A stretch of DNA of 64,000 nucleotides from Oscillospiraceae bacterium NTUH-002-81. GTDB taxonomy: Bacteria; Bacillota; Clostridia; Lachnospirales; Lachnospiraceae. Made by a program: the position numbers and the translations under genes. Location: the NCBI GenBank assembly GCA_032620915.1, contig CP136052.1:1216501-1280500 (forward strand). The letters are read 5' to 3'. This document shows positions 43,197 to 53,950 of the stretch, one piece after another. The stretch's first letter is position 1, and each line of letters starts with the position of its first letter. The notes below the pieces were generated by a model. That model saw only the letters and a program-made list of their open reading frames with translations, was not told where the DNA came from and made no database searches.

Positions 43197-44360
43197 ATGA
43201 CAAAGATAGACATTATTTCAGGGTTCCTCGGAGCCGGAAAGACCACATTGATCAGAAAATTGCTGGACGAGGCGCTGAAAGGCCAGAAGATCGTCCTCAT
43301 CGAGAATGAGTTCGGTGAGATCGGTATCGACGGCGGCTTCTTAAAAGATGCCGGTGTGCAGATCACAGAGATGAACTCCGGTTGCATCTGCTGCTCTCTG
43401 GTGGGCGATTTTGGCACCGCTCTGCAGGATGTATTAAAGCAGTTCGCCCCTGACCGGATCATCATCGAGCCCTCCGGCGTGGGCAAGCTGTCTGACGTCA
43501 TGAAGGCTGTGCTGAAAGTGGCAGATGAGGCAGATATCGAGCTTTCCACTTACACTGCTGTGGCAGATGCCATGAAGTGCAAAATGTTTATGAAAAACTT
43601 CGGCGAATTCTACAACAATCAGATCGAGAGCGCCAAGTGTATCGTGCTGAGCAGAACCCAGAAGCTCTCCGAGAAGAAGCTGGATGAGGTTGTTGCTATG
43701 ATCCGGGAGAAAAATCCGGAGGCAACCATTGTCACTACTCCTTGGGATGATATTTCCGGCGCACAGATCATGGATGCCATGGAGAAAAAGAACGATTTCG
43801 TTATGCAGCTGATGGAAGAGGAAGAGCATGACCACGATCACTGCGGCTGCGATCATGACCATGATCACGAGCATCATCATCACGATCATGACCATGACCA
43901 TGAAGAGCATGACCACCACGATCACGACCATGACCATGAGGAGCATGATCACCACGATCATGACCATGACCACGAGGAGCATGATCACCATGATCACGAA
44001 CATCATGAGCATCACTACGATGAGCACGGTAACTGCAGCTGCGGCCACCATCATCATGACCATGAGGGCCATCATCACGCAGATGATGTATTTACCAGTT
44101 GGGGCACCGAGACCCATCATAAATACACCGACGACGAGGTACAGGAAGTGCTGGAGCGCATGGCCAACAGTCAGGAATTCGGCATGGTACTGCGTGCAAA
44201 GGGCATGATCCAGGCAACAGACGGCACATGGATCTACTTTGACCTTGTGCCCGGCGAATACGAGATCCGTAAGGGAGAGCCGGAAGTGACCGGCCGCCTG
44301 TGCGTGATCGGTACAGAACTGAAAACAGAAGAGATCGAGCGGGCATTCCGTTTGAAGTAA
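43197..44360 (+). CDS. COG0523 (CobW-like) GTPase with long His-rich region
   Basis: This 387-residue G3E GTPase is of the zinc/cobalt chaperone type. The P-loop is GFLGAGKTT, the metal motif is CICC in NSGCICCSL, and Walker B/G3 is EPSGVGK; SRTQ stands at the position of the usual NKxD. Residues about 208-300 are mostly His, Asp and Glu, a strong metal-binding tract built from near-identical units, and the CobW C-terminal domain follows. A metal store or chaperone role, probably zinc or nickel, is inferred. The next gene is a second G3E-like protein. Confidence 0.85.
   Translation: MTKIDIISGFLGAGKTTLIRKLLDEALKGQKIVLIENEFGEIGIDGGFLKDAGVQITEMNSGCICCSLVGDFGTALQDVLKQFAPDRIIIEPSGVGKLSDVMKAVLKVADEADIELSTYTAVADAMKCKMFMKNFGEFYNNQIESAKCIVLSRTQKLSEKKLDEVVAMIREKNPEATIVTTPWDDISGAQIMDAMEKKNDFVMQLMEEEEHDHDHCGCDHDHDHEHHHHDHDHDHEEHDHHDHDHDHEEHDHHDHDHDHEEHDHHDHEHHEHHYDEHGNCSCGHHHHDHEGHHHADDVFTSWGTETHHKYTDDEVQEVLERMANSQEFGMVLRAKGMIQATDGTWIYFDLVPGEYEIRKGEPEVTGRLCVIGTELKTEEIERAFRLK
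43828..44080 (+). repeat. His/Asp-coding tandem repeat
   Basis: Near-identical units of about 42 bases code (DHDHDHEEHDHH)n. The array could expand or contract by slippage, changing the length of the His tract. Confidence 0.7.
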
Positions 44361-44372
44361 GGATGTGAAGAA

Positions 44373-45314
44373 ATGCTGGAGATACCGGTATATATTGCGA
44401 CAGGCTTTCTGGAAAGCGGAAAGACCTCTTTTATCAAAGAAATCCTGGAAGACCATGAATTCACAGAGGGCAAGAAAGTGCTTGTCATCTGCTGTGAGGA
44501 AGGCGTAGAGGAATACGAGGAAGAAGTGCTGGCCGACGGCAACGCCGTACTTGTCACCGTGGAAAGCCCGGAAGAACTCACCACCGATTTCCTCAAACAG
44601 CTGCAGCGCCAGCACCGCCAGAAGCTGACCATCTTCGAGTACAACGGCATGTGGAAAATCGAGAAGCTGCTGGAAGTACTGCCGAAAAACTGGCCGGTGG
44701 TACAGACCTTCACCATGATCGATGCCAGCACCTTTGAAATGTACTTAAGCAACATGCGTTCCATCATGATGGAGCTGGTGAAGCTGTCCGATGTGGTCAT
44801 TTTCAACCGCTGTACCAAGGACACGAAGAAGGGAAGCCTGCGCCGTTCCGTGAAGGCTGCCAACCGACAGGTACAGATCATTTACGAGTCCATTGACGGC
44901 AGCGATGAGGATGACGATGACGATGATCTGCCCTTCGACCTGACGGCGGACACCATCGAGATTGAGGACGACGACTACGGTCTGTGGTATCTGGATGCCA
45001 TGGACCACCCGGAAAAATATGACGGCAAGACCGTACATTTCACGGCTATGGTATACCGGGGCGACAAGCTGCCCAAGGGCTATTTCGTGCCGGGCCGCTT
45101 TGCCATGACCTGTTGCGCGGAAGATGTCACCTTCGTGGGCTTCCTGTGCAAATCCCAGTTCGCGGACAAACTGCGGCAGAAGGAATTCATCAAGCTCACC
45201 GCCACGGTGAAAACCGAGATGCGAAAAGAATACCAGGGCCCCGGCCCGGTGCTCACAGCGGTGAAGATCGAGAAAGCCGAGAAGCCGGAAGAAGAGCTCG
45301 TATACTTTACGTAA
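44373..45314 (+). CDS. G3E GTPase-like protein fused to a DUF1980/YcgQ-like domain
   Basis: The 313-residue protein starts with a short P-loop domain (YIATGFLESGKTSFIKEIL) that lacks the CxCC metal motif; a FNRCTK sequence stands where NKxD is expected. An acidic linker (DEDDDDDDLPFDL) follows. The C-terminal domain (PEKYDGKTVHFTAMVYRGDKLPKGYFVPGRFAMTCCAEDVTFVGFLCKS) resembles YcgQ/DUF1980 proteins, which in Bacillus pair with a permease and zinc-linked G3E proteins. It starts 12 bases after the His-rich GTPase, so joint metal handling is inferred. Confidence 0.75.
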   Translation: MLEIPVYIATGFLESGKTSFIKEILEDHEFTEGKKVLVICCEEGVEEYEEEVLADGNAVLVTVESPEELTTDFLKQLQRQHRQKLTIFEYNGMWKIEKLLEVLPKNWPVVQTFTMIDASTFEMYLSNMRSIMMELVKLSDVVIFNRCTKDTKKGSLRRSVKAANRQVQIIYESIDGSDEDDDDDDLPFDLTADTIEIEDDDYGLWYLDAMDHPEKYDGKTVHFTAMVYRGDKLPKGYFVPGRFAMTCCAEDVTFVGFLCKSQFADKLRQKEFIKLTATVKTEMRKEYQGPGPVLTAVKIEKAEKPEEELVYFT

Positions 45315-45346: not shown

Positions 45347-45403
45347 AGAGAATCGACAACGCCTGTGAAGGATGAACACATGGTGTGTCGGTTCTCTTTT
45401 TTT
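45347..45403 (+). terminator. Terminator after the metal GTPase pair
   Basis: AGAGAATCGACA pairs with TGTCGGTTCTCT (one G-T pair), and seven T follow. Confidence 0.82.
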
Positions 45404-45424
45404 GTAATTTAAGTAAATTACATA

Positions 45425-45453
45425 TTGACGAAACTGGAAAGTGGATGTATTAT
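45425..45453 (+). promoter_or_regulatory. Promoter of the type I restriction locus
   Basis: TTGACG (45425-45430) and TATTAT (45448-45453) have 17-base spacing in an A/T-rich stretch, 55 bases before the first gene. An AGTATAGTATAGTGTAG run lies between. Confidence 0.6.
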
Positions 45454-45508
45454 GATATTGTAATTTAATTAAAGTACAGTATAGTATAGTGTAGAAAGCG
45501 GTGATGTA

Positions 45509-46051
45509 ATGGCCGAAATGAGACAACTAAACGAAATTATGAGTTTTTCCCTGGGCAAAAATCCTACGAGAATTCATGCACAGGAATTGCGCTTATATTC
45601 CCCTGAGAATTTTGAAAATGATTTATCGTGTGTGAATGTACATGACAAAAGATCGGAATGCATTATCAATCTGATGAAGACGAAAGCGGCACCTGTTTCG
45701 ACAGCGAATGCAGATAAATGCCTCACGTCGAATTTTTTGCGATGCAAATTCGATTCTAAGATACTGGATAAATGGTATTTCTGTTTTCAATTTAACGAGG
45801 GGAAGGATTTTGAGCAGCAGATAGCGATGTTCCATCAGGGGACAACCTTGAGTGTGAAAAAATTGAATGTGAAAACCATCGGTGAGTTAAAAATAAGACT
45901 GCCAGAGATCGAAAAGCAGCGGGTAATCGGCGAGCTTTATCGGCGATCATTGATAGAAAATCGGCTGAGAATCAAACAGGCGGAAGATATGAACCATCTG
46001 ACGCTTGCGCTGATCCGAAAAATAGAGGAGGATGAAAAGGATGGAGAGTAA
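45509..46051 (+). CDS. HsdS-like half specificity protein
   Basis: This is a 180-residue protein with the shape of one target-recognition domain plus a conserved helix. The beta-rich first part is followed by KLNVKTIGELKIRLPEIEKQRVIGELYRRSLIENRLRIKQ, as in HsdS. Full HsdS has two such halves. It overlaps hsdM by 11 bases and is the first gene of the operon. Small HsdS-like proteins placed before hsdM occur in other Clostridia. A role in modulating specificity or in assembly is possible, but its own DNA target is unknown. Confidence 0.65.
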   Translation: MAEMRQLNEIMSFSLGKNPTRIHAQELRLYSPENFENDLSCVNVHDKRSECIINLMKTKAAPVSTANADKCLTSNFLRCKFDSKILDKWYFCFQFNEGKDFEQQIAMFHQGTTLSVKKLNVKTIGELKIRLPEIEKQRVIGELYRRSLIENRLRIKQAEDMNHLTLALIRKIEEDEKDGE

Positions 46052-47633
46052 AGACTTATTGCAGGTATTATGGAATGGAGCAGATGTGCTGAGGGGGAAA
46101 ATGGATGCCAACGAATATAAAACATATTTGTTAGGACTGGTTTTCTATAAATATCTGTCAGATGCTTACCTGGCAAAAGTATATGATTTGCTGAATGATG
46201 AAACACCGGACGATTTACAGGAGGCGCAGAAGCAATATGAAGAAATCATGAAGACTGCTGATGCCAAAGAATTGCTTCAGGAACTGAAACATTCTTTGCA
46301 TTATACCCTTGACCCGGATATGACATATGTCAGCATGCTGAATGCGGCAAAGGACAATGCATTTAACAGAGAAAAATTGCAGGCTGCATTTAACCGGATC
46401 CAGGAATCTGATGCATTATTCAATGGGCTATTTGCTGACGTAGATTTATATTCCAACAGATTGGGAACGGGAGACCAGAAGCAGAGTGCAACGGTGGCAG
46501 AAGTCATCAAAGTGTTGGATGGAGCTGATTTAATCCATGCCAAAGGAGATGTCCTGGGAAATGCATATGAATATCTGATTGGTCAGTTCGCATCTGAGAC
46601 AGGAAAAAAAGCAGGGGAGTTTTATACGCCGCATGGCCCGGCACAGATTCTTTGCAGAATTGCGATGACCGGGCAGGAGAACAAAAAAGGCCTGCAGGTA
46701 TATGACCCGTGTATGGGCTCTGGTTCTCTGATGCTCAGCTGCAAAAATTATTCAAGCGAACCGGATTATATCAAGTATTATGGACAGGAACTGATGCCAT
46801 CGACCTACAATCTGGCGAGAATGAATATGTTCCTTCACGGGGTGCTTCCGGAAAACCAGCATCTTCGAAATGGAGATACGCTGGATGCAGACTGGCCGAC
46901 AGACGAAGATACAGAATTTGATGTAGTTACCATGAATCCGCCCTATTCAGCTCACTGGTCTGCGGCCGAGGGTTTTAAACAGGACGAAAGATTTATGGAT
47001 TATGGAGGAAAGCTTGCACCGAAATCAAAAGCGGATTATGCATTCCTACTGCACGGATTTTATCATTTGAAACAAACAGGAACCATGGCAATCGTATTGC
47101 CGCATGGCGTTCTTTTCAGAGGTGCAGCAGAAGGGGCAATCAGGGAAACCCTGCTGAAAAACGGTTCCATTTATGCGGTTATTGGATTACCGTCCAATAT
47201 GTTTTATAATACGTCCATTCCCACATGTATTATTGTTCTCAAAAAACACAGAGAAGGCAGAGATGTGTTATTTATCGATGCATCCAGCCTTTATACAAAA
47301 GAAAAGAAACAGAATGTGATGCATGAAGAGCATATTAACAAGGTGCTGGAGCTGTATCGAGACAGAAAAACTGTAGATAAACTGGCGTATGTGGCATCCT
47401 TTGATGACATCCGGGCCAATGACTATAACCTCAATATTCCCAGATATGTAGATACCAGTGAGGAAGAAGAAGAGATTGACTTAAAGCAGCTGACGCAGGA
47501 TATCAGAGAGACAAATAAGGCGATCAAAGAAGAGAATCATACCTTATTGTCCATGCTTCGGGAACTTACTTTCCGTTCCGAAGAAACCAAAGAGGCTGTT
47601 GAGGATTTTATCAAGATATTTGAGGAGGTGTAG
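46041..47633 (+). CDS. hsdM: Type I restriction-modification methyltransferase HsdM
   Basis: This is an N6-adenine methyltransferase subunit of about 530 residues. The helical N-terminal domain (WNGADVLRGKMDANEYKTYLLGLVFYKYLSD) is followed by AdoMet motif I YDPCMGSGSL and catalytic NPPY (MNPPYSAHW), with the FYTP motif before motif I. ATG 46041 is preferred over 46032 because GAGGAGG then has nine bases of spacing. hsdS follows after two bases. Confidence 0.95.
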   Translation: MESKDLLQVLWNGADVLRGKMDANEYKTYLLGLVFYKYLSDAYLAKVYDLLNDETPDDLQEAQKQYEEIMKTADAKELLQELKHSLHYTLDPDMTYVSMLNAAKDNAFNREKLQAAFNRIQESDALFNGLFADVDLYSNRLGTGDQKQSATVAEVIKVLDGADLIHAKGDVLGNAYEYLIGQFASETGKKAGEFYTPHGPAQILCRIAMTGQENKKGLQVYDPCMGSGSLMLSCKNYSSEPDYIKYYGQELMPSTYNLARMNMFLHGVLPENQHLRNGDTLDADWPTDEDTEFDVVTMNPPYSAHWSAAEGFKQDERFMDYGGKLAPKSKADYAFLLHGFYHLKQTGTMAIVLPHGVLFRGAAEGAIRETLLKNGSIYAVIGLPSNMFYNTSIPTCIIVLKKHREGRDVLFIDASSLYTKEKKQNVMHEEHINKVLELYRDRKTVDKLAYVASFDDIRANDYNLNIPRYVDTSEEEEEIDLKQLTQDIRETNKAIKEENHTLLSMLRELTFRSEETKEAVEDFIKIFEEV

Positions 47634-47635
47634 AC

Positions 47636-48829
47636 ATGGGGAATACACCGGAAATCAGGTTTAAAGGATACACGGATGATTGGGAACAGCGTAAGTTGGG
47701 AGATGTCGTTCAGATAACTATGGGACAATCACCTGATGGTAGTACCTATTCCGATGAGCCGAGTGATTATATTCTTGTCCAAGGTAATGCCGATTTGCAA
47801 AACGGTTGGGTTTGTCCTCGTATTTGGACAACACAGATTACTAAGAAAGCGGATGCAGGCGACTTGATAATGAGCGTTCGTGCTCCAGCTGGAGCAATGG
47901 GAAAAACCGCTTATAACGCTGTAATTGGGCGTGGTGTTGCAGCAATCAAAGGAAATGAATTCATATATCAACTGCTCGTAAAAATGGATATGGACGGCTT
48001 TTGGAAAACACTTTCCTGCGGCTCAACATTCGAATCACTCAACTCGGACAATATAAAAAATGCTGAAGTTAAAGTGCCAATAACAGCGGAACAAGTACAA
48101 ATCGGTAACTTCTTTCGGCAACTCGACAACCTTATCACCCTTCATCAGCGTAAGTGTAATGAAACAAAAAAACTGAAAAAATACATGCTTCAAAAAATGT
48201 TTCCGAAAAATGGTGAAAAAAAACCGGAAATAAGATTTGAAGGATTTACGGACGATTGGGAACAGCGTAAGGTTACAGAATTAGGTGAAATATATATTGG
48301 TTTAGTCACGACAATGACTGAACACTATACAGATCAGGGTCATTTATTGATTAGAAATTCAGATATAAAAGATGGGTATTTTGAATTTGGGGAAAATCCA
48401 ATTTATCTTGATGAGGAATTTTCTAAACAAAATAAATCAAGAATGCACCAGCTAGGGGATGTAATAACGGTACATACAGGTGATATAGGAACATCTGCTG
48501 TAATAGGCGAAAATGAAGTGAATTCAATAGGTTTCGCAACAATTGTAACTCGACCAAATCAAGAAATATTAGACTCAGGTTATTTTGCAACGTATTTGAA
48601 TACTGATACTCATAAACAATGGGCTATTTCAATAGCAACGGGTGATGGACGCTCGAATTATAATCTGAAAGATTATACAAAACTTATGGTTCCGATACCT
48701 CAAATTGAGGAACAAAAGAAAATTGCAGCTTGTATTGGCAATTTGAATAACCTTATCACCCTTCATCAGCGTAAACTGGAAGAGTTACAAACAATGAAAA
48801 AATTTATGCTGAGTAAGATGTTTGTCTAG
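47636..48829 (+). CDS. hsdS: Type I specificity subunit HsdS
   Basis: This is a 397-residue protein with two target-recognition domains (about residues 15-165 and 210-365). Each starts with DDWEQRK and ends with LITLHQRK followed by a conserved helix (MLQKMFP and MLSKMF). It sets the DNA sequence recognised by HsdM and HsdR. The same boundary words flank a third domain at 50436-50986, so domains could be exchanged by recombination. The coding sequence inside the recognition domains is A/T-richer than hsdM and hsdR, typical of imported variable domains. Confidence 0.93.
   Translation: MGNTPEIRFKGYTDDWEQRKLGDVVQITMGQSPDGSTYSDEPSDYILVQGNADLQNGWVCPRIWTTQITKKADAGDLIMSVRAPAGAMGKTAYNAVIGRGVAAIKGNEFIYQLLVKMDMDGFWKTLSCGSTFESLNSDNIKNAEVKVPITAEQVQIGNFFRQLDNLITLHQRKCNETKKLKKYMLQKMFPKNGEKKPEIRFEGFTDDWEQRKVTELGEIYIGLVTTMTEHYTDQGHLLIRNSDIKDGYFEFGENPIYLDEEFSKQNKSRMHQLGDVITVHTGDIGTSAVIGENEVNSIGFATIVTRPNQEILDSGYFATYLNTDTHKQWAISIATGDGRSNYNLKDYTKLMVPIPQIEEQKKIAACIGNLNNLITLHQRKLEELQTMKKFMLSKMFV
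47681..47695 (+). repeat. TRD start repeat (three copies in the locus)
   Basis: TGGGAACAGCGTAAG occurs here, at 48257-48271 and at 50438-50452. A TRD end repeat beginning TTATCACCCTTCATCAGCG occurs at 48132-48153, 48753-48774 and 50901-50922. All are in the same direction and bracket the three recognition domains. Confidence 0.9.
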
Positions 48830-48843
48830 GAAGGAGGGCCAAA

Positions 48844-49491
48844 ATGGGAAAAATCACTTTATTTCACGGAACTCCAGATAAAATTGTTATGCCGGTATTC
48901 GGTGGCGGGAATGATAAACATGATTATGGACGTGGATTTTATTTGACAGAAAATATGGAACTGGCAAAAGAATGGGCGGTGTGCAGACCAAATGATACAA
49001 ACGGCTGGGTGCATCAATTTGAATTGGATTGTTCCGGGTTGAAAATTTTGGACTTTCAGGAAGAAAATCTTCTTAGCTGGCTGGCAGAACTGATGAAACA
49101 TCGGGATGCGGCAGATTCCAGGCGATATCGAATGCTTTCTGCTCGATTCATCGAAAAATATGGGATTGATACCAGTGGATATGATGTGATCAAAGGCTGG
49201 CGTGCGGATGCCTCGTATTTTTACATTGCAAAAGAGTTTGTGAGAGATAATATTGATGTGGATATTTTGCAGGAATTGCTTTCTCTTGGTGGATTGGGCA
49301 TTCAGTATTGCTTGAAATCCAAGCGGGCATACGCGCAGTTAAAGGAAATAGAGAATGGACTGACTGCTGTTGATTATGCAGAATTTAACGACAGGTATAA
49401 TCAGCGTGATATTGTAGCAAGAAGAAATATGCGAGCACTGGTTGATTCAGATGCAAATAAAGTAACAAAAGTGTTCAGTACGTTGCTTTAA
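48844..49491 (+). CDS. DUF3990 protein, ADP-ribosyltransferase-like
   Basis: The 215-residue protein starts ITLFHGTPDKIVMPVFGGG and has DYGRGFYLTEN. These resemble the His (FHGT, H8) and Tyr (GFYLT, Y33) sites of PARP-like transferases, and Q154 in GIQYCLKSKRA may be the third site. DUF3990 is, to my knowledge, placed in the ADP-ribosyl superfamily. It starts 14 bases after hsdS with AAGGAGG, and an unknown gene and a NADAR gene follow. A toxin or defence effector that modifies nucleic acid or protein, reversed by NADAR, is inferred, not shown. Confidence 0.75.
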   Translation: MGKITLFHGTPDKIVMPVFGGGNDKHDYGRGFYLTENMELAKEWAVCRPNDTNGWVHQFELDCSGLKILDFQEENLLSWLAELMKHRDAADSRRYRMLSARFIEKYGIDTSGYDVIKGWRADASYFYIAKEFVRDNIDVDILQELLSLGGLGIQYCLKSKRAYAQLKEIENGLTAVDYAEFNDRYNQRDIVARRNMRALVDSDANKVTKVFSTLL

Positions 49492-49506
49492 AGGATGGTG
49501 ATGGTG

Positions 49507-49923
49507 ATGCGGGCTTATGCAGATGCCTATTTGGAGGATGTGGTAGAAAATCAGGGGAAACTGTTTGATTTGGTGTCACAGGAATTCCCGGATAAAGATA
49601 CAGAGGATTTCATCAATGCTTACATGACAAGTAAAACCAGGTTAAGCATTGATGAGGCGAAGGCGTATGTGAATACGATGGATGCAAAAGAGCTTTGGAA
49701 TTATTTCGTTGAAACAGAAAAGTATGTATTGAAACCGGGGAAAGCACTGGAAGGGTTTATGCCGGATTGGATCGGAGAATTCTATGCATACTATCAGTGG
49801 TATTATAATATGCCAAGTGCGGAAATTATAAAAAAGATTCCATTAAATTTTCTGAAAAAAGCATATTATGGGCTTCATGATCTGGAATTGGATCTGGCAG
49901 TGCAGAAAGTAGGCATGGTGTGA
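49507..49923 (+). CDS. Uncharacterised helical protein between DUF3990 and NADAR genes
   Basis: This acidic, probably all-helical protein has about 138 residues. The first half (AYLEDVVENQGKLFDLVSQEFPDKDTEDFINAYMTSKTRLSIDEAKAY) could bind DNA or a partner. The second half holds KALEGFMPDWIGEFYAYYQWYYN and ends HDLELDLAVQKVGMV. There are three possible starts (49495, 49501, 49507); the last gives the best distance from AAAGG. It overlaps the NADAR gene by one base. The family is not recognised; a companion antitoxin or adaptor to DUF3990 is likely from its position. Confidence 0.6.
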   Translation: MRAYADAYLEDVVENQGKLFDLVSQEFPDKDTEDFINAYMTSKTRLSIDEAKAYVNTMDAKELWNYFVETEKYVLKPGKALEGFMPDWIGEFYAYYQWYYNMPSAEIIKKIPLNFLKKAYYGLHDLELDLAVQKVGMV

Positions 49924-50435
49924 TGCATGTGATTGGCTTTCATAACCCGGAAGAAGAATACGGATTTTTGAGTAACTGGTATCCTTCTGCATTTTGCTGG
50001 AACGATATTCAGTTTGCCTCTGTAGAGCAATACATGATGTATCGAAAGGCGTTGTATTTTGATGATCAGGAAATTGCTGCGCAGATTTTGAAAACGGAGG
50101 ATGTGGCAAGAATCAAAGAACTGGGCCGGATGGTGTCTGGATATGATGATCGGTTGTGGGGTGGAATCCGTCAGCTGATTGTGTACGAGGGCTTGAAGGA
50201 GAAATTTTCACAAAATCCACGTCTTAGGGAGCAATTACTGGAAACCGGAGATGCGATACTGGCAGAGTGTGCGGTGAAAGACCGCATTTGGGGCATTGGA
50301 TTGTCCATGACAGACCCGAATCGCTTTGATTTAAATTTGTGGAAGGGACAAAATCTGTTGGGGTATGCACTGATGATGGCGCGTTATGAACAGAAAAGGC
50401 TGTTGACGGGGAAACAGGGGTATAAAATACTCTAG
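49923..50435 (+). CDS. NADAR (DUF1768/YbiA-like) domain protein
   Basis: This 170-residue NADAR-family protein has IGFHNPEEEYGFLSNWYPSAFCWNDIQFASVEQYMMYRKALYF, with the typical FLSNWY and ASVEQYMMY-KA motifs, and later KDRIWGIGLSMTDPNRFDLNLWKGQNLLGYALMMAR. NADAR proteins process ADP-ribose-linked compounds, and some remove ADP-ribose from guanine bases in DNA or RNA. Here it follows a DUF3990 transferase-like gene, so reversal of that modification is inferred. The next bases after its stop are the HsdS recognition-domain fragment. Confidence 0.88.
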   Translation: MHVIGFHNPEEEYGFLSNWYPSAFCWNDIQFASVEQYMMYRKALYFDDQEIAAQILKTEDVARIKELGRMVSGYDDRLWGGIRQLIVYEGLKEKFSQNPRLREQLLETGDAILAECAVKDRIWGIGLSMTDPNRFDLNLWKGQNLLGYALMMARYEQKRLLTGKQGYKIL

Positions 50436-50986
50436 CTTGGGAACAGCGTAAGTTTGGCGATATTGGCTCAATTGCTATGTGTAAGCGAATTTTTAAAGAG
50501 CAGACATCAGATGAGGGTGAAGTGCCTTTTTATAAGATAGGCACATTTGGTGTTGAACCAGACGCATTCATTTCAAAAGAGTTATTTGACGAGTATAAAA
50601 CTAAATATCCATATCCGAACAAGGGCGATATATTGATTTCTGCTTCTGGTAGCATTGGCAGAACCGTTGAATTTACTGGAAAAGATGAATATTTTCAAGA
50701 TTCAAATATCGTGTGGCTTAAACATGGAAATGAGATAGACAACAGCTTTTTAAAAGTTTTATATAGCGTCGTAGAGTGGTCTTGTGAAGGTTCTACTATC
50801 AAGAGATTATATAATGATAATTTCTTAAAAACGGAGTTTATGCTTCCACAAATTGATGAGCAAATCAAATTAGGAACATATTTTTCTAATCTGGAACACT
50901 TTATCACCCTTCATCAGCGTAAGTGTGACCAACTAAAATTATTGAAAAATTATATGCTGCAAAATATGTTCCCGCAGAAAGGAAAA
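50436..50986 (+). pseudogene. Extra HsdS target-recognition domain cassette
   Basis: From 50438 the text reads WEQRKFGDIGSIAMCKRIF ..., then a full recognition domain (ISASGSIGRTVEFTGKDEYF; FMLPQIDEQIKLGTYF), LHQRKCDQLKLLKNYMLQNMFPQKGK, with no start codon of its own type at the conserved word and no stop before hsdR. It looks like the 3' half of a second hsdS whose 5' part was lost or replaced by the DUF3990/NADAR block. It can serve as a donor of recognition sequence. In frame it would read through into HsdR. Confidence 0.8.
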
Positions 50987-53950
50987 ATGACGATGGCAGA
51001 ATTGGAATCGGTAATCGAAAAACGTCTCGTAGATCAGCTTTGCGGCGGAGAGTCCCAGTGGACATACAGGCCTGATCTTAAGACGGAAGCGGATTTATGG
51101 AACAATTTTAAATACATATTGGAACAGAATAATAAGGCAAAGCTGGATGATCAGCCACTGAGTGAATCCGAATTCGCCAAGGTGAAGAATGATCTCTCCC
51201 ATGCGTCATTTTATGATGCCGGGAAATGGCTGGTTGGAGAGAATGGAAAAGTATATGTTCATGTGCAGAGGGGAAATGAGACGCTTCACCTGGTTGTTAT
51301 GAATAATGAGCATATTGCAGGCGGATCCAGTGTTTATGAGGTGATTAATCAGTATCAGGCATTTCAGGAAGATGGGGATGGGCAGGGAAGAGACCGTAGG
51401 TTCGATGTGACGCTTCTCATCAATGGAATTCCAATGATCCATATAGAATTAAAAAATAAAGAGCATTCCTATATGGATGGATACCGGCAGATCAAGAAAT
51501 ATATTGCCGAGGGAAAATTTCATGGAATATTTTCCAATGTGCAGATGTTTGTGGTCAGCAATGTGGTGGATACAAAATATTTTTCGGCAGCCAAGGACAC
51601 GGAATTAAACAAGAAATTTCTGACGGGCTGGATCGACAATGAAAATTTGCCGGTATGCGATTACATTGATTTCGCGCAGGCAGTTTTGAGAATCCCGCAG
51701 GCCCATGAGATGGTGACAAAGTATACGGTGCTTGATAATGATAAGAGAAAATTGCTTATTTTAAGACCATATCAGATTCATGCCATTGAGGCGATGAGAG
51801 CGGCTTCCAAAGTGGGAAAGTCTGGATTTATCTGGCACACAACGGGCTCTGGAAAAACAATGACATCCTATAAAGCAACCAGAAATCTTCTGATGGATAT
51901 TCCTTCAATCCAAAAGACGGTATTTCTGATTGACAGGAAAGACTTGGATTTACAGACGAAGGGCGCTTTTCAGTCCTATGCGGACAATGATACCATTGAT
52001 GTGGATGATACCGAGCATGTGGGAAGCCTGATCAAAAAGCTGGCGGACGATAACCGTCAGATGATTGTAACGACCAGACAGAAAATGCAGGTGATGATTC
52101 ACCGGCGTTTGAAGGAGGGGAGCAGGGAGTACAACAAAATAAAATCCCTGAAAATTGCGTTTGTGGTAGATGAGTGCCACCGGGCAGTTACGCCGCAGAC
52201 CAAAAGAGATATGGAACGGTTTTTCAATCAATCCATTTGGTTCGGATTTACGGGGACACCCATATTTGAAGAAAATAAGTATGAGCAAAAAGGGGACTTG
52301 CCGCAGACGACAGAAGAATTATATGGCCCGTGTCTCCACAACTACACAATAAAAGAAGCCATTCATGATGGCGCGGTATTGGGCTTCAATGTGGAGAATC
52401 TGGGGCCTAAGGATGTCTCAAAAGACGATGAGGAAAAGTATTATCACAGTGAAGGGCATATGAGAAATGTCCTGAATATTGTGTTGAATCACTCTCTTTC
52501 CAAGTTTGGCATGCAAAATGGAAAGGGGAAGACATATGAGGCAATGCTTACGGTAGAGTCCATTGCAGTGGCACAAAAATATTATGATATGATTCTGAAA
52601 ATCAAAGCAGGAGAGGATAAACTGAAAATCAGTGAGGATGTCAGGAAGGCGCTTCCTGATTTTCCCAAAGTGGCAATCACTTTTTCTGTATCTGAAAACG
52701 ATGAGGCATCAAAGGCAAACCAGGATGCGATGAAGAGATATCTGGCTTATTATAATAAACTTTTCGGCACAAAGTATGAATTAAGTGGCCTGGGTGCGTA
52801 CAACGGAAATCTGAATGACAGATTGGCCAGAAAGGAAAAACGGTATATAGACAGAGAGCAGCAGGTGGATCTTGTGATTGTGGTAGACCGCTTACTGACA
52901 GGATTTGATGCCCCGTGTCTCTCGACGCTTTTTATCGACAGACCGCCGATGAGCCCACAGGGACTGATTCAGGCATTTTCAAGAACCAACCGTTTGTTTG
53001 ACCAGAATAAAGAATACGGACAGATTGTGACATTTAGAGACCCGAAGGATTTCAGGGAAAAGATTAATGAAGCGCTTGTATTGTATTCGAAAGGTGGCAT
53101 CGGACAGGCAATCGCAGAAGGCTGGGAAACGGTGCTGGAGAATTTCAGCCTGTCTTTAAGAACAATACGCACATTTGCGCCTGAGCCCAAAGATGTCATG
53201 GAATTGTCCAAAAAGCAGAAGAAAACCTTTATCAAGCTATTCAGAGACCTGGATCATGATTATGCGCATCTGAAATCATTTTCCACATTTGAACCGGAAA
53301 TACTGGAGGAATATCATTTCAGCCAGGATATCTATGAAAATTATGCGGCGGTATATAAGAATGTGCTGGAGGAACTGCGAAAAGATCCGCCGGATGATAC
53401 AGATGATCCCATCCGGGATGACTATGATTTGGTGGCTTACAGCAAATTCAGAATTGATTTTGAATACATCATGGAACTGTTGCAGGGATTTGTGGATTCA
53501 CTAAATCAGAAGGATGATGATTTTGATGAGGTTGAGTTTGAACGTAGGTTTTTTAGATTAAAAGCGCTTATAAAAGAGTATTGTGCAGATAATCCAAAAT
53601 TGAGTGATTTGCTGATGCAGGTGTTAAATGAGATTAAACAGGATAAGGCAAGATTTCTTGGACAGGATGTCTCTGTTATGATCAATCAAATGCGTTATGC
53701 AGCAGTTGACAAAGAAATAAAGCGATTTGCAGAGCAGTGGTTTATCCCATTTGATGATGTGAAATACGAGGTGTTCAATTTTAAGGACGGAGAGCTTGCC
53801 AACGAAAATAAGCTGAAGGAGCAGGCGGATTATGCGGCATATAAGGAACAGACACCAAGTGCCCTTCCAAAGTTCAAATTTAACAGTGCACTGATACGGG
53901 AGTTTAAGGAAGTGCTTATGCCTGAAATTGAACTTTGGATTGAACAGTAG
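50987..53950 (+). CDS. hsdR: Type I restriction endonuclease subunit HsdR
   Basis: This 987-residue translocase-nuclease has an N-terminal PD-(D/E)xK nuclease (DVTLLINGIPMIHIELKNKE). The SF2 motor has Walker A HTTGSGKTM, DECH box VVDECHRAV, GFTGTPIF, and motif VI QAFSRTNRLF, followed by a helical C-terminal domain that contacts HsdM. The start at 50987 has AGAAAGGA upstream; an open frame continues upstream through the recognition-domain fragment, but a real HsdS-HsdR fusion is unlikely. It completes a type I R-M system together with hsdM and hsdS. Confidence 0.95.
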   Translation: MTMAELESVIEKRLVDQLCGGESQWTYRPDLKTEADLWNNFKYILEQNNKAKLDDQPLSESEFAKVKNDLSHASFYDAGKWLVGENGKVYVHVQRGNETLHLVVMNNEHIAGGSSVYEVINQYQAFQEDGDGQGRDRRFDVTLLINGIPMIHIELKNKEHSYMDGYRQIKKYIAEGKFHGIFSNVQMFVVSNVVDTKYFSAAKDTELNKKFLTGWIDNENLPVCDYIDFAQAVLRIPQAHEMVTKYTVLDNDKRKLLILRPYQIHAIEAMRAASKVGKSGFIWHTTGSGKTMTSYKATRNLLMDIPSIQKTVFLIDRKDLDLQTKGAFQSYADNDTIDVDDTEHVGSLIKKLADDNRQMIVTTRQKMQVMIHRRLKEGSREYNKIKSLKIAFVVDECHRAVTPQTKRDMERFFNQSIWFGFTGTPIFEENKYEQKGDLPQTTEELYGPCLHNYTIKEAIHDGAVLGFNVENLGPKDVSKDDEEKYYHSEGHMRNVLNIVLNHSLSKFGMQNGKGKTYEAMLTVESIAVAQKYYDMILKIKAGEDKLKISEDVRKALPDFPKVAITFSVSENDEASKANQDAMKRYLAYYNKLFGTKYELSGLGAYNGNLNDRLARKEKRYIDREQQVDLVIVVDRLLTGFDAPCLSTLFIDRPPMSPQGLIQAFSRTNRLFDQNKEYGQIVTFRDPKDFREKINEALVLYSKGGIGQAIAEGWETVLENFSLSLRTIRTFAPEPKDVMELSKKQKKTFIKLFRDLDHDYAHLKSFSTFEPEILEEYHFSQDIYENYAAVYKNVLEELRKDPPDDTDDPIRDDYDLVAYSKFRIDFEYIMELLQGFVDSLNQKDDDFDEVEFERRFFRLKALIKEYCADNPKLSDLLMQVLNEIKQDKARFLGQDVSVMINQMRYAAVDKEIKRFAEQWFIPFDDVKYEVFNFKDGELANENKLKEQADYAAYKEQTPSALPKFKFNSALIREFKEVLMPEIELWIEQ

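What the first reader, a model, noticed from the sequence alone, without database searches (positions are those of the whole stretch)
48844..50435. ADP-ribosylation-type cassette (DUF3990, unknown, NADAR) inside a restriction locus
A PARP-like DUF3990 protein (FHGT and GFYLT sites), an unknown helical protein and a NADAR protein are packed between hsdS and hsdR with 15-base gaps or overlaps. NADAR enzymes can remove ADP-ribose from guanine, and transferase-NADAR pairs act as toxin-antitoxin systems. Inside a type I locus, the cassette could act as a second defence layer if restriction is beaten, or as an addiction module that protects the R-M locus. The middle protein, with no known family, may be the sensor or a second antitoxin.
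Basis: partly seen in the sequence, partly recalled or inferred. Interest (0 to 1): 0.75.

Follow-up and report, generated by a model that had tools for sequence, protein, structure and literature searches.

The report
Toxin–antitoxin cassette inside restriction operon
Three genes between the recognition and cutting subunits of a bacterial DNA-restriction system look like a built-in toxin with two safety catches, of a type already catalogued as a possible virus defence but not known to have been tested; the comparison suggests which partner holds the toxin and where such cassettes slot in.

Summary
Between hsdS and hsdR lie a DUF3990 ADP-ribosyltransferase-like gene (A), a helical protein (B) and a NADAR hydrolase (C). 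All three match PADLOC's defence candidate PDC-M42, so the set is already catalogued. Comparison changes the reading. (1) B, not NADAR, is the fixed partner of A: of 87 M42A-like genes in 397 related genomes, 83 have B beside them, 1 a B fragment, 2 end at contig edges, 1 lacks it; by my reading of two hit lists only 17 have an M42C-type NADAR. (2) Relatives without NADAR look like two-gene toxin–antitoxin operons: 42 of 61 carry a DNA-binding HTH on B or A, against 0 of 50 M42 rows. (3) B's C-terminus resembles DUF3791, the small partner of other DUF3990 genes. (4) The cassette sits at a boundary of the hsdS TRD array, between repeated END and START motifs; other toxin-like cassettes use that slot. 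Restriction genes lie within 6 kb of 20 of 49 M42 loci: linkage is common, not obligatory. Toxicity, substrate and phage defence are untested.

The parts
48844..49491 (+). Gene A: DUF3990 ADP-ribosyltransferase-like protein, PDC-M42A; putative toxin with H8-Y33-Q154
   Evidence: Pfam 8e-37; PADLOC 1.5e-124; conservation
49495..49923 (+). Gene B: all-helical PDC-M42B; C-terminal part resembles DUF3791; putative primary antitoxin or partner of A
   Evidence: PADLOC 4.7e-78; profile comparison; AlphaFold model, best of five pLDDT 94.3; adjacency to A
49920..50435 (+). Gene C: NADAR of the YbiA class, PDC-M42C; putative guanine-ADP-ribose hydrolase
   Evidence: Pfam 1.6e-46; PADLOC 4.6e-81; 11 ADP-ribose-site residues present
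46032..47633 (+). hsdM, type I methyltransferase subunit
   Evidence: Pfam N6_Mtase 6e-104
47636..48829 (+). hsdS, full two-TRD specificity subunit
   Evidence: Pfam Methylase_S 2e-30, 2 stretches
50436..50985 (+). Headless half-hsdS (third TRD) after the cassette; likely a silent TRD donor or remnant (upper limit approximate)
   Evidence: Methylase_S in residues 2-154 of the ORF; START/END map
50477..53950 (+). hsdR ORF; the N-terminal ~170 aa are the read-through TRD
   Evidence: HSDR_N, SWI2_SNF2, EcoR124_C
47680..47694 (+). START motif copy 1 (TTGGGAACAGCGTAA, encodes WEQRK), start of TRD1
48256..48270 (+). START motif copy 2, start of TRD2
50437..50451 (+). START motif copy 3, one base after the NADAR stop codon
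48757..48774 (+). END motif (CACCCTTCATCAGCGTAA, within ITLHQRK) near the 3' end of hsdS, left border of the slot
50905..50922 (+). END motif of the third TRD; with 48757 it forms a direct repeat around the cassette
45403..45478 (+). Two palindromic operator-like sites (45403-45422, 45459-45478) around a sigma-70-like promoter match (-35 at 45425, -10 ending 45453)
45509..46051 (+). First ORF of the operon, 180 aa, half-HsdS-like
   Evidence: PADLOC Specificity_I 4e-07; Pfam Methylase_S only 0.016, below cut-off

Best explanation
The cassette is a copy of PADLOC candidate PDC-M42, a toxin-antitoxin-like defence module with a double lock. Gene A is a mono-ADP-ribosyltransferase toxin. Gene B is its near-obligatory partner and primary antitoxin, most likely by binding. 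Gene C is a NADAR hydrolase that strips ADP-ribose, probably from guanine in DNA or RNA, and so clears leakage. The module is transcribed with hsdMSR. When a phage disturbs B, A is freed, modifies nucleic acid faster than C can reverse it, and growth or phage replication stops. Its kin are two-gene A-B operons that usually carry an autorepressor-like HTH; in the M42 clade the HTH is absent and NADAR is present. It sits in a slot of the hsdS TRD array flanked by direct repeats, through which it can plausibly be exchanged or lost by homologous recombination. Shown here: families, conserved residues, co-occurrence, decay pattern and slot. Inferred: toxicity, binding of A by B, guanine as substrate, the phage trigger, recombination as the route.
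For: Family and PADLOC matches. H-Y-Q conserved in A. In C, all 11 residues checked against those named for ADP-ribose binding or catalysis in P. nicotianae NADAR are identical, including the Glu of the YbiA class; this assumes PDB 8bau is that protein, with a constant 2-residue offset. A with B: 83 of 87, 1 with a B fragment at a contig edge, 2 cut by contig ends, 1 without; 19 of 19 for M42A proper. M42C-type NADAR beside 16 of those 19 and, by my reading of the lists, 17 of 87. In 48 M42 loci away from contig edges, A is missing or broken in 17; B is still intact in 12 of these and C in 11. HTH on B or A in 42 of 61 relatives against 0 of 50. M42 is one clade, support 91/90. B-DUF3791: probability 85%, E 7e-6; reversed B, A and C controls 0.1-0.2%. 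START without mismatch near the NADAR end in 15 of 50 M42 rows, 0 of 61 relatives.
Against: No toxicity, binding or phage data. Two loci (L063, L068) have intact A, frameshifted B and no C, though both are draft sequences. B could instead be needed for A to fold or act, as CmdA is for CmdT (PMC11445053). M42 loci were mostly found through B, so their A and C frequencies are conditional on B. The split 'NADAR only with M42-type B' has an exception outside the counted set: L199 has an M42C-type NADAR (280 bits) beside a divergent B (70 bits) and a shortened A. L231 has a weak NADAR-like fragment (32 bits) by a relative's A. The DUF3791 link covers about 40 residues and is weak with the M42 profile alone (7.5%; 3.2% with a smaller DUF3791 set). 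Seven M42C-type NADARs, one of them broken, occur without A or B.
Confidence: 0.5

Rival explanations
1. DarTG1- or YarT-like logic: A is the toxin and NADAR is the true antitoxin; B is a folding partner, activator or sensor, as in the CmdTAC arrangement where CmdA is needed for CmdT.
For: YarT-YbiA is an ART rescued by a YbiA-class NADAR (PMC11125620 section 6). CmdT needs CmdA (PMC11445053). NADAR beside 38 of 49 M42 loci, with a complete ADP-ribose site. L063 and L068 keep A without an intact B, though they also lack C.
Against: A-B pairs without an M42C-type NADAR are the commoner form in the family, so tolerance of A cannot depend on it in general. 3 of 19 M42A genes lack C. A Treponema plasmid carries DUF3990 plus B with no NADAR annotated beside it.
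Confidence: 0.22
2. Addiction or selfish module: the cassette mainly stabilises the R-M locus or its mobile element and is not an anti-phage device.
For: TA-like decay pattern. The locus has lower G+C (hsd and cassette parts 34.5-45.0%) than the window (51.0%) or dnaK (52.4%), so looks acquired.
Against: 29 of 49 M42 loci have no hsd gene found within 6 kb. The cassette is flanked by direct repeats that would let it be lost without the R-M genes.
Confidence: 0.13
3. Regulatory or guard module: A modifies a specific host or phage target reversibly, tuned by C, with little toxicity.
For: NADARs are erasers of a reversible mark (PMC11543638), and M42C-type NADARs occur alone in 7 loci.
Against: A is lost while B and C stay in several loci, as expected of a toxin; autorepressor-like HTH forms in relatives.
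Confidence: 0.1

Closest known systems
PDC-M42 (PADLOC-DB 2.0.0 phage defence candidate)
   Same: All three proteins match the M42A, M42B and M42C models over nearly their whole length.
   Different: A catalogued candidate; none of the 14 papers listed holds its name. This work adds the two-gene kin, the DUF3791 link and the TRD slot.
[quoted passage not shown]
   Same: ART toxin with an ADP-ribose hydrolase antitoxin in the same gap of a type I operon, with repeated palindromes at the promoter.
   Different: DarT and a macrodomain antitoxin, two genes; here DUF3990, B and NADAR. I did not search for an RptR homologue.
DarTG1 (DarT1-NADAR, PMC11543638; section 12 and passages seen)
   Same: ART plus NADAR in one operon.
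   Different: DarT family ART and an Asp-type NADAR; here DUF3990, a Glu-type NADAR and a third protein.
YarT-YbiA of myxobacteria (PMC11125620; section 6 and passages seen)
   Same: Small ART with a YbiA-class NADAR.
   Different: H-Y-E ART of the HYD1 group; no B protein mentioned in the section read.
CmdTAC (PMC11618068 abstract; correction PMC11445053 whole text)
   Same: Three-gene ART defence system.
   Different: The third component is a chaperone that senses capsid; no hydrolase named in the abstract.
DUF3791-DUF3990 pairs and PDC-M10
   Same: DUF3990 with a small partner; L037 and L035/L205 carry such sets in the same hsdS slot.
   Different: Other partner proteins than B and no adjoining NADAR; function unknown to me.

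Membership tests
PDC-M42 | Matches to the M42A, M42B and M42C profiles in adjacent genes on one strand | tested here: met
   1.5e-124, 4.7e-78, 4.6e-81
PDC-M42 | Lies within a type I R-M operon | tested here: met
   in the wider set 20 of 49 loci have hsd genes within 6 kb. That embedding defines the candidate is recalled.
PDC-M42 | Anti-phage activity | not testable with these tools
DarTG1 | Toxin belongs to the DarT family | tested here: not met
   only DUF3990 and a weak ART-PolyVal hit at E up to 1
DarTG1 | NADAR with Asp at the third catalytic position | tested here: not met
   Glu E116, aligned to E125 of the YbiA class
YarT-YbiA | YbiA-class NADAR beside an ART | tested here: met
YarT-YbiA | Two-gene pair with H-Y-E ART | tested here: not met
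   three genes; H-Y-Q
Toxin-antitoxin module | Toxin gene kept only together with its antitoxin gene | tested here: met
   A with B 83 of 87, 1 B fragment at an edge, 2 cut by contig ends, 1 without; not met for NADAR; two B-frameshift loci tell against
Toxin-antitoxin module | Autorepressing DNA-binding domain | tested here: not met
   0 of 50 M42 rows; 42 of 61 relatives have an HTH; not universal in TA systems (recalled)
Toxin-antitoxin module | Toxicity of A and rescue by partner | not testable with these tools
   needs expression tests
CmdTAC | SecB-like chaperone component | tested here: not met
   B has no Pfam chaperone match and an all-helical model; that CmdC is SecB-like and SecB beta-rich is recalled

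The most novel reading that the evidence does not exclude
The hsdS TRD array of these gut bacteria works as a recombination-driven cassette slot. Repeated START and END motifs that shuffle DNA-recognition domains also let toxin modules (PDC-M42, PDC-M10, DUF3791-DUF3990, Fic proteins) enter, leave or be swapped without breaking the R-M system. In this setting a DUF3990 toxin-antitoxin pair whose kin carry an autorepressor instead has an ADP-ribose eraser: damage repair in place of transcriptional self-control.
Probability: 0.3. Interest if true: 0.68.

Novelty: new member of a known kind. Interest (0 to 1): 0.48.

Why it matters
DUF3990 genes are common in this family of gut bacteria and little studied (4 papers of the searched library hold the word; DUF3791: 1). 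The comparison turns a three-gene candidate into a specific model: A toxin, B antitoxin, C eraser, each step open to a plate assay. It also gives a concrete reason why defence genes collect between hsdS and hsdR: the site is a boundary of the TRD array flanked by repeats. If the double lock is real, it would show how a toxin-antitoxin pair can trade self-repression for enzymatic clean-up, and how such modules move into another defence operon.

Tried and rejected
Considered and dropped: (i) B as a DUF3791 protein outright: no Pfam match, and only the C-terminal ~40 residues align. (ii) The TRD-HsdR ORF as a true fusion protein: the same in-frame reading occurs in L034, L046, L057 and L209, but hsdR keeps an ATG with a purine-rich stretch before it, so I treat it as read-through of an orphan TRD. 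(iii) Inverted-repeat phase variation around the cassette: the long repeats found there are direct; the inverted pairs were short. (iv) The cassette in E. coli genomes: no match; the R-M locus on plasmids by near search: no match. (v) M10B as a B homologue: 0.3%; to DUF3791 16.7%, too weak with few sequences.

Not obtained: a model of A, and any fold search of B's model. Payne et al. 2024, which I recall as the source of embedded candidates, is not held; I saw only citations of it. So I cannot say what that preprint reports on M42.

Limits and rows dropped before counts: short loci L001-L032 and L110-L116 were left out; identical B proteins were counted once; L067 and L069 (B remnants) are not among the counted rows. 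L064 and L068 were first put with the relatives and moved to M42; L068 gives two rows. The Fisher tests use the earlier 47/64 split (50/61 for START). Rows are related by descent, so those P values overstate independence. The A, B, C, Hsd and HTH profiles were built from my own loci and may miss distant members. The 17-of-87 count sees only NADARs that match the M42C model at E up to 1e-30. One search checked distance on a contig, not strand. Outside the counted relatives, L215 holds an A-B-HTH pair beside hsdR/hsdS remnants with a START nearby, so relatives are not wholly absent from R-M surroundings. One search gave a quick tree; the finished one, whose bootstrap had not fully settled. One search ended in a script error after printing the sequences.

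Full report
WHAT IS THERE. The window lies in a 3.62 Mb single-contig genome at C1:1216501-1280500. The named contigs nearest to its B are mostly Lachnospiraceae. The hsd operon runs half-hsdS-like ORF (45509-46051), hsdM, hsdS, A (48844-49491), B (49495-49923), C (49920-50435), then a headless half-hsdS reading in frame into hsdR (50477-53950). Pfam names A DUF3990 and C NADAR and finds nothing over its cut-off for B. PADLOC names all three: PDC-M42A, B and C at 1.5e-124, 4.7e-78 and 4.6e-81. So the three-gene set is a catalogued candidate. A search of the open library for PDC-M42 and related terms listed 14 papers, none with that name; it is one library without preprints.

CATALYTIC COMPETENCE. 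In 63 A rows, H8, Y33 and Q154 are each identical in 59; the rest are gaps save one P and one E at 154. H-Y-[E/D/Q] is given as the ARTD motif in PMC11125620 (section 6 read). In C, the alignment to PDB 8bau places E36, K43, K66, R70, Y75, D77, W80, R84, E116, D121 and W124 on identical residues that PMC11543638 section 12 (read) names as E43, K50, K75, R79, Y84, D86, W89, R93, E125, D130 and W133 of P. nicotianae NADAR. That 8bau is this protein is my inference from the constant offset. The Glu at 116 makes C a YbiA-class NADAR, not the Asp class of DarTG1. That paper and PMC11833690 (passages) report that NADARs remove ADP-ribose from guanine in DNA and RNA, so guanine is the best guess for the mark left by A, but it is a guess.

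WHICH PARTNER HOLDS THE TOXIN. I searched 397 genomes of the same family with each of the three PADLOC models. Of 87 A places (E up to 1e-30), 78 have a listed B within 700 bp. Of the other nine, five have a B found with a broader model, one has a truncated B-like piece (24 bits) at a contig edge, two A genes end at a contig edge, and one (L224) has none. For M42A proper (E below 1e-50, some partial) it is 19 of 19. An M42C-type NADAR stands beside 16 of these 19 and, by my reading of the two lists, 17 of all 87. Conversely, of 34 strong C places (E below 1e-65) I fetched seven that lacked A and B in the lists; all seven are NADARs without A or B nearby, one of them broken. Among 54 distinct M42 loci, 48 are away from contig edges: A is intact in 31 (B intact in 29 of these, C in 24) and missing or broken in 17 (B intact in 12, C in 11). 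Against my reading, two loci have intact A with frameshifted B and no C (L063, L068). The loci were found through B, so only the A-first search is unbiased on the A-B link.

ORIGIN. Relatives of B (E up to 0.001) occur in 118 of 397 genomes of this family but in 7 of 398 spread across the phylum. I fetched 60 weaker places. In the final count, 61 relative rows include 51 with A adjacent, 0 with NADAR, 42 with an HTH on B or on A, and 1 with hsd genes within 6 kb. In the M42 group (50 rows, 49 loci) 38 loci have NADAR, 0 rows have the HTH and 20 loci have hsd genes. Two findings outside these counts blur the line: L199 has an M42C-type NADAR beside a divergent B (70 bits) and a shortened A, and L215 has an A-B-HTH pair beside hsd remnants. 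Pfam confirms HTH_3 domains on a B relative (L071, 3.7e-10) and on an A relative (L082, 1.1e-9). On the finished tree of 109 B rows M42 is one clade (91/90; one side in 91% of 200 bootstrap trees), while the hsd label needs 16 changes, at least 6 forced by well-supported branches. So NADAR goes mainly with one clade that lacks the HTH, and R-M linkage was gained or lost repeatedly. The tree does not show direction.

WHAT B IS. The AlphaFold2 model of B is confident (best of five: pLDDT 94.3, pTM 0.89; a second 92.2, the other three 45-54) and all-helical apart from isolated bridges. A fold search could not be run. The combined B profile matches a DUF3791 profile over ~40 residues at probability 85% (E 7e-6); reversed B, A and C give 0.1-0.2%; the M42 profile alone gives only 7.5%. 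Of 48 DUF3791 domains, 34 have DUF3990 within 200 bp (five of the 35 loci had been fetched for other reasons and already held DUF3990). B therefore may belong to a wider group of small DUF3990 partners.

WHERE IT SITS. Two motifs tile these hsdS genes: START (TTGGGAACAGCGTAA, coding WEQRK) and END (CACCCTTCATCAGCGTAA, coding part of ITLHQRK). Inside full-length hsdS ORFs where both were found, END and the next START are 120 nt apart. The cassette lies between the END of the full hsdS and the START of a further half-hsdS. START is present without mismatch near the end of the cassette in 15 of 50 M42 rows and 0 of 61 relatives. In the window genome START occurs three times, all in this locus. 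Among 299 family genomes 33 hold START. I fetched 20 further START places. Seven show other genes at the hsdS end: PDC-M10 with DUF3990 (L205), a DUF3990 gene (L219), Fic-type PDC-S04 (L206, L207, L212), a Schlafen AlbA_2 protein (L204) and a set with DUF4238 and DUF4869 matches (L220); the other 13 show none there or are cut or rearranged. [quoted passage not shown] the TRD-boundary detail is what I add. That recombination uses these repeats is inferred. Of 12 neighbours scanned at M42 loci without a clear R-M system, most were housekeeping or mixed genes; one lone B lies beside Cas9 and one cassette beside a RhuM gene. A phage-collection contig from human faeces (L233) carries hsdM, hsdS, A, B, C, half-hsdS and hsdR homologues in this order, with START and END in place. 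A Treponema plasmid has DUF3990 and B with no NADAR annotated beside them, near ToxN/AbiQ and HEPN genes.

REGULATION. The best-scoring promoter-like match on the + strand before A is that of the hsd operon (45425-45453); such matches are no more frequent in the region than in shuffles (22 against 25.1). It is flanked by two palindromes found nowhere else in the genome at two mismatches. So the cassette probably shares the hsd promoter; the repressor is unknown.

VERDICT. A real, recurrent, catalogued candidate. The added value is a testable assignment of roles (A toxin, B antitoxin, C eraser) and of the insertion slot. Function remains inferred.

Noticed in passing
window 45403-45422 and 45459-45478: Two 20-bp palindromes (TGTAATTTA..TAAATTACA type) bracket the hsd promoter match and occur nowhere else in the genome at 2 mismatches; the cognate repressor is unknown.
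   Followed up: partly
window 50477-53950; L034, L046, L057, L209: A headless TRD reads in frame into hsdR in five loci; probably read-through, but the recurrence is odd.
   Followed up: partly
window 45509-46051; L103: A half-HsdS-like ORF is the first gene of the operon, before hsdM.
   Followed up: no
L204, L205, L206, L207, L212, L219, L220: Other cassettes at the hsdS end: Schlafen AlbA_2 protein, PDC-M10, Fic-type PDC-S04, DUF3990 gene, a DUF4238/DUF4869 set.
   Followed up: partly
L192-L198: M42C-type NADAR genes without A or B (L198 broken): orphan erasers of unknown role.
   Followed up: partly
L199 5482-6842: An M42C-type NADAR beside a divergent B and a shortened A: either an early branch or a second pairing of NADAR with an A-B module.
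   Followed up: no
L215 4501-6970: An A-B pair with HTH on B lies on the opposite strand beside hsdR/hsdS remnants and a START motif.
   Followed up: no
L233 (MT837160.1): A contig filed as phage carries the hsdM-hsdS-A-B-C-half hsdS-hsdR order; phage origin unverified.
   Followed up: partly
L066 9980-14301: An M42-type B gene without A or C lies next to a Cas9 gene in a contig titled Spirochaetia.
   Followed up: no
window 43197-44360 and 44373-45314: Two ORFs before the hsd operon look like a CobW-type GTPase with a long His/Asp-rich tract and a second such protein (recognised by eye, not searched).
   Followed up: no
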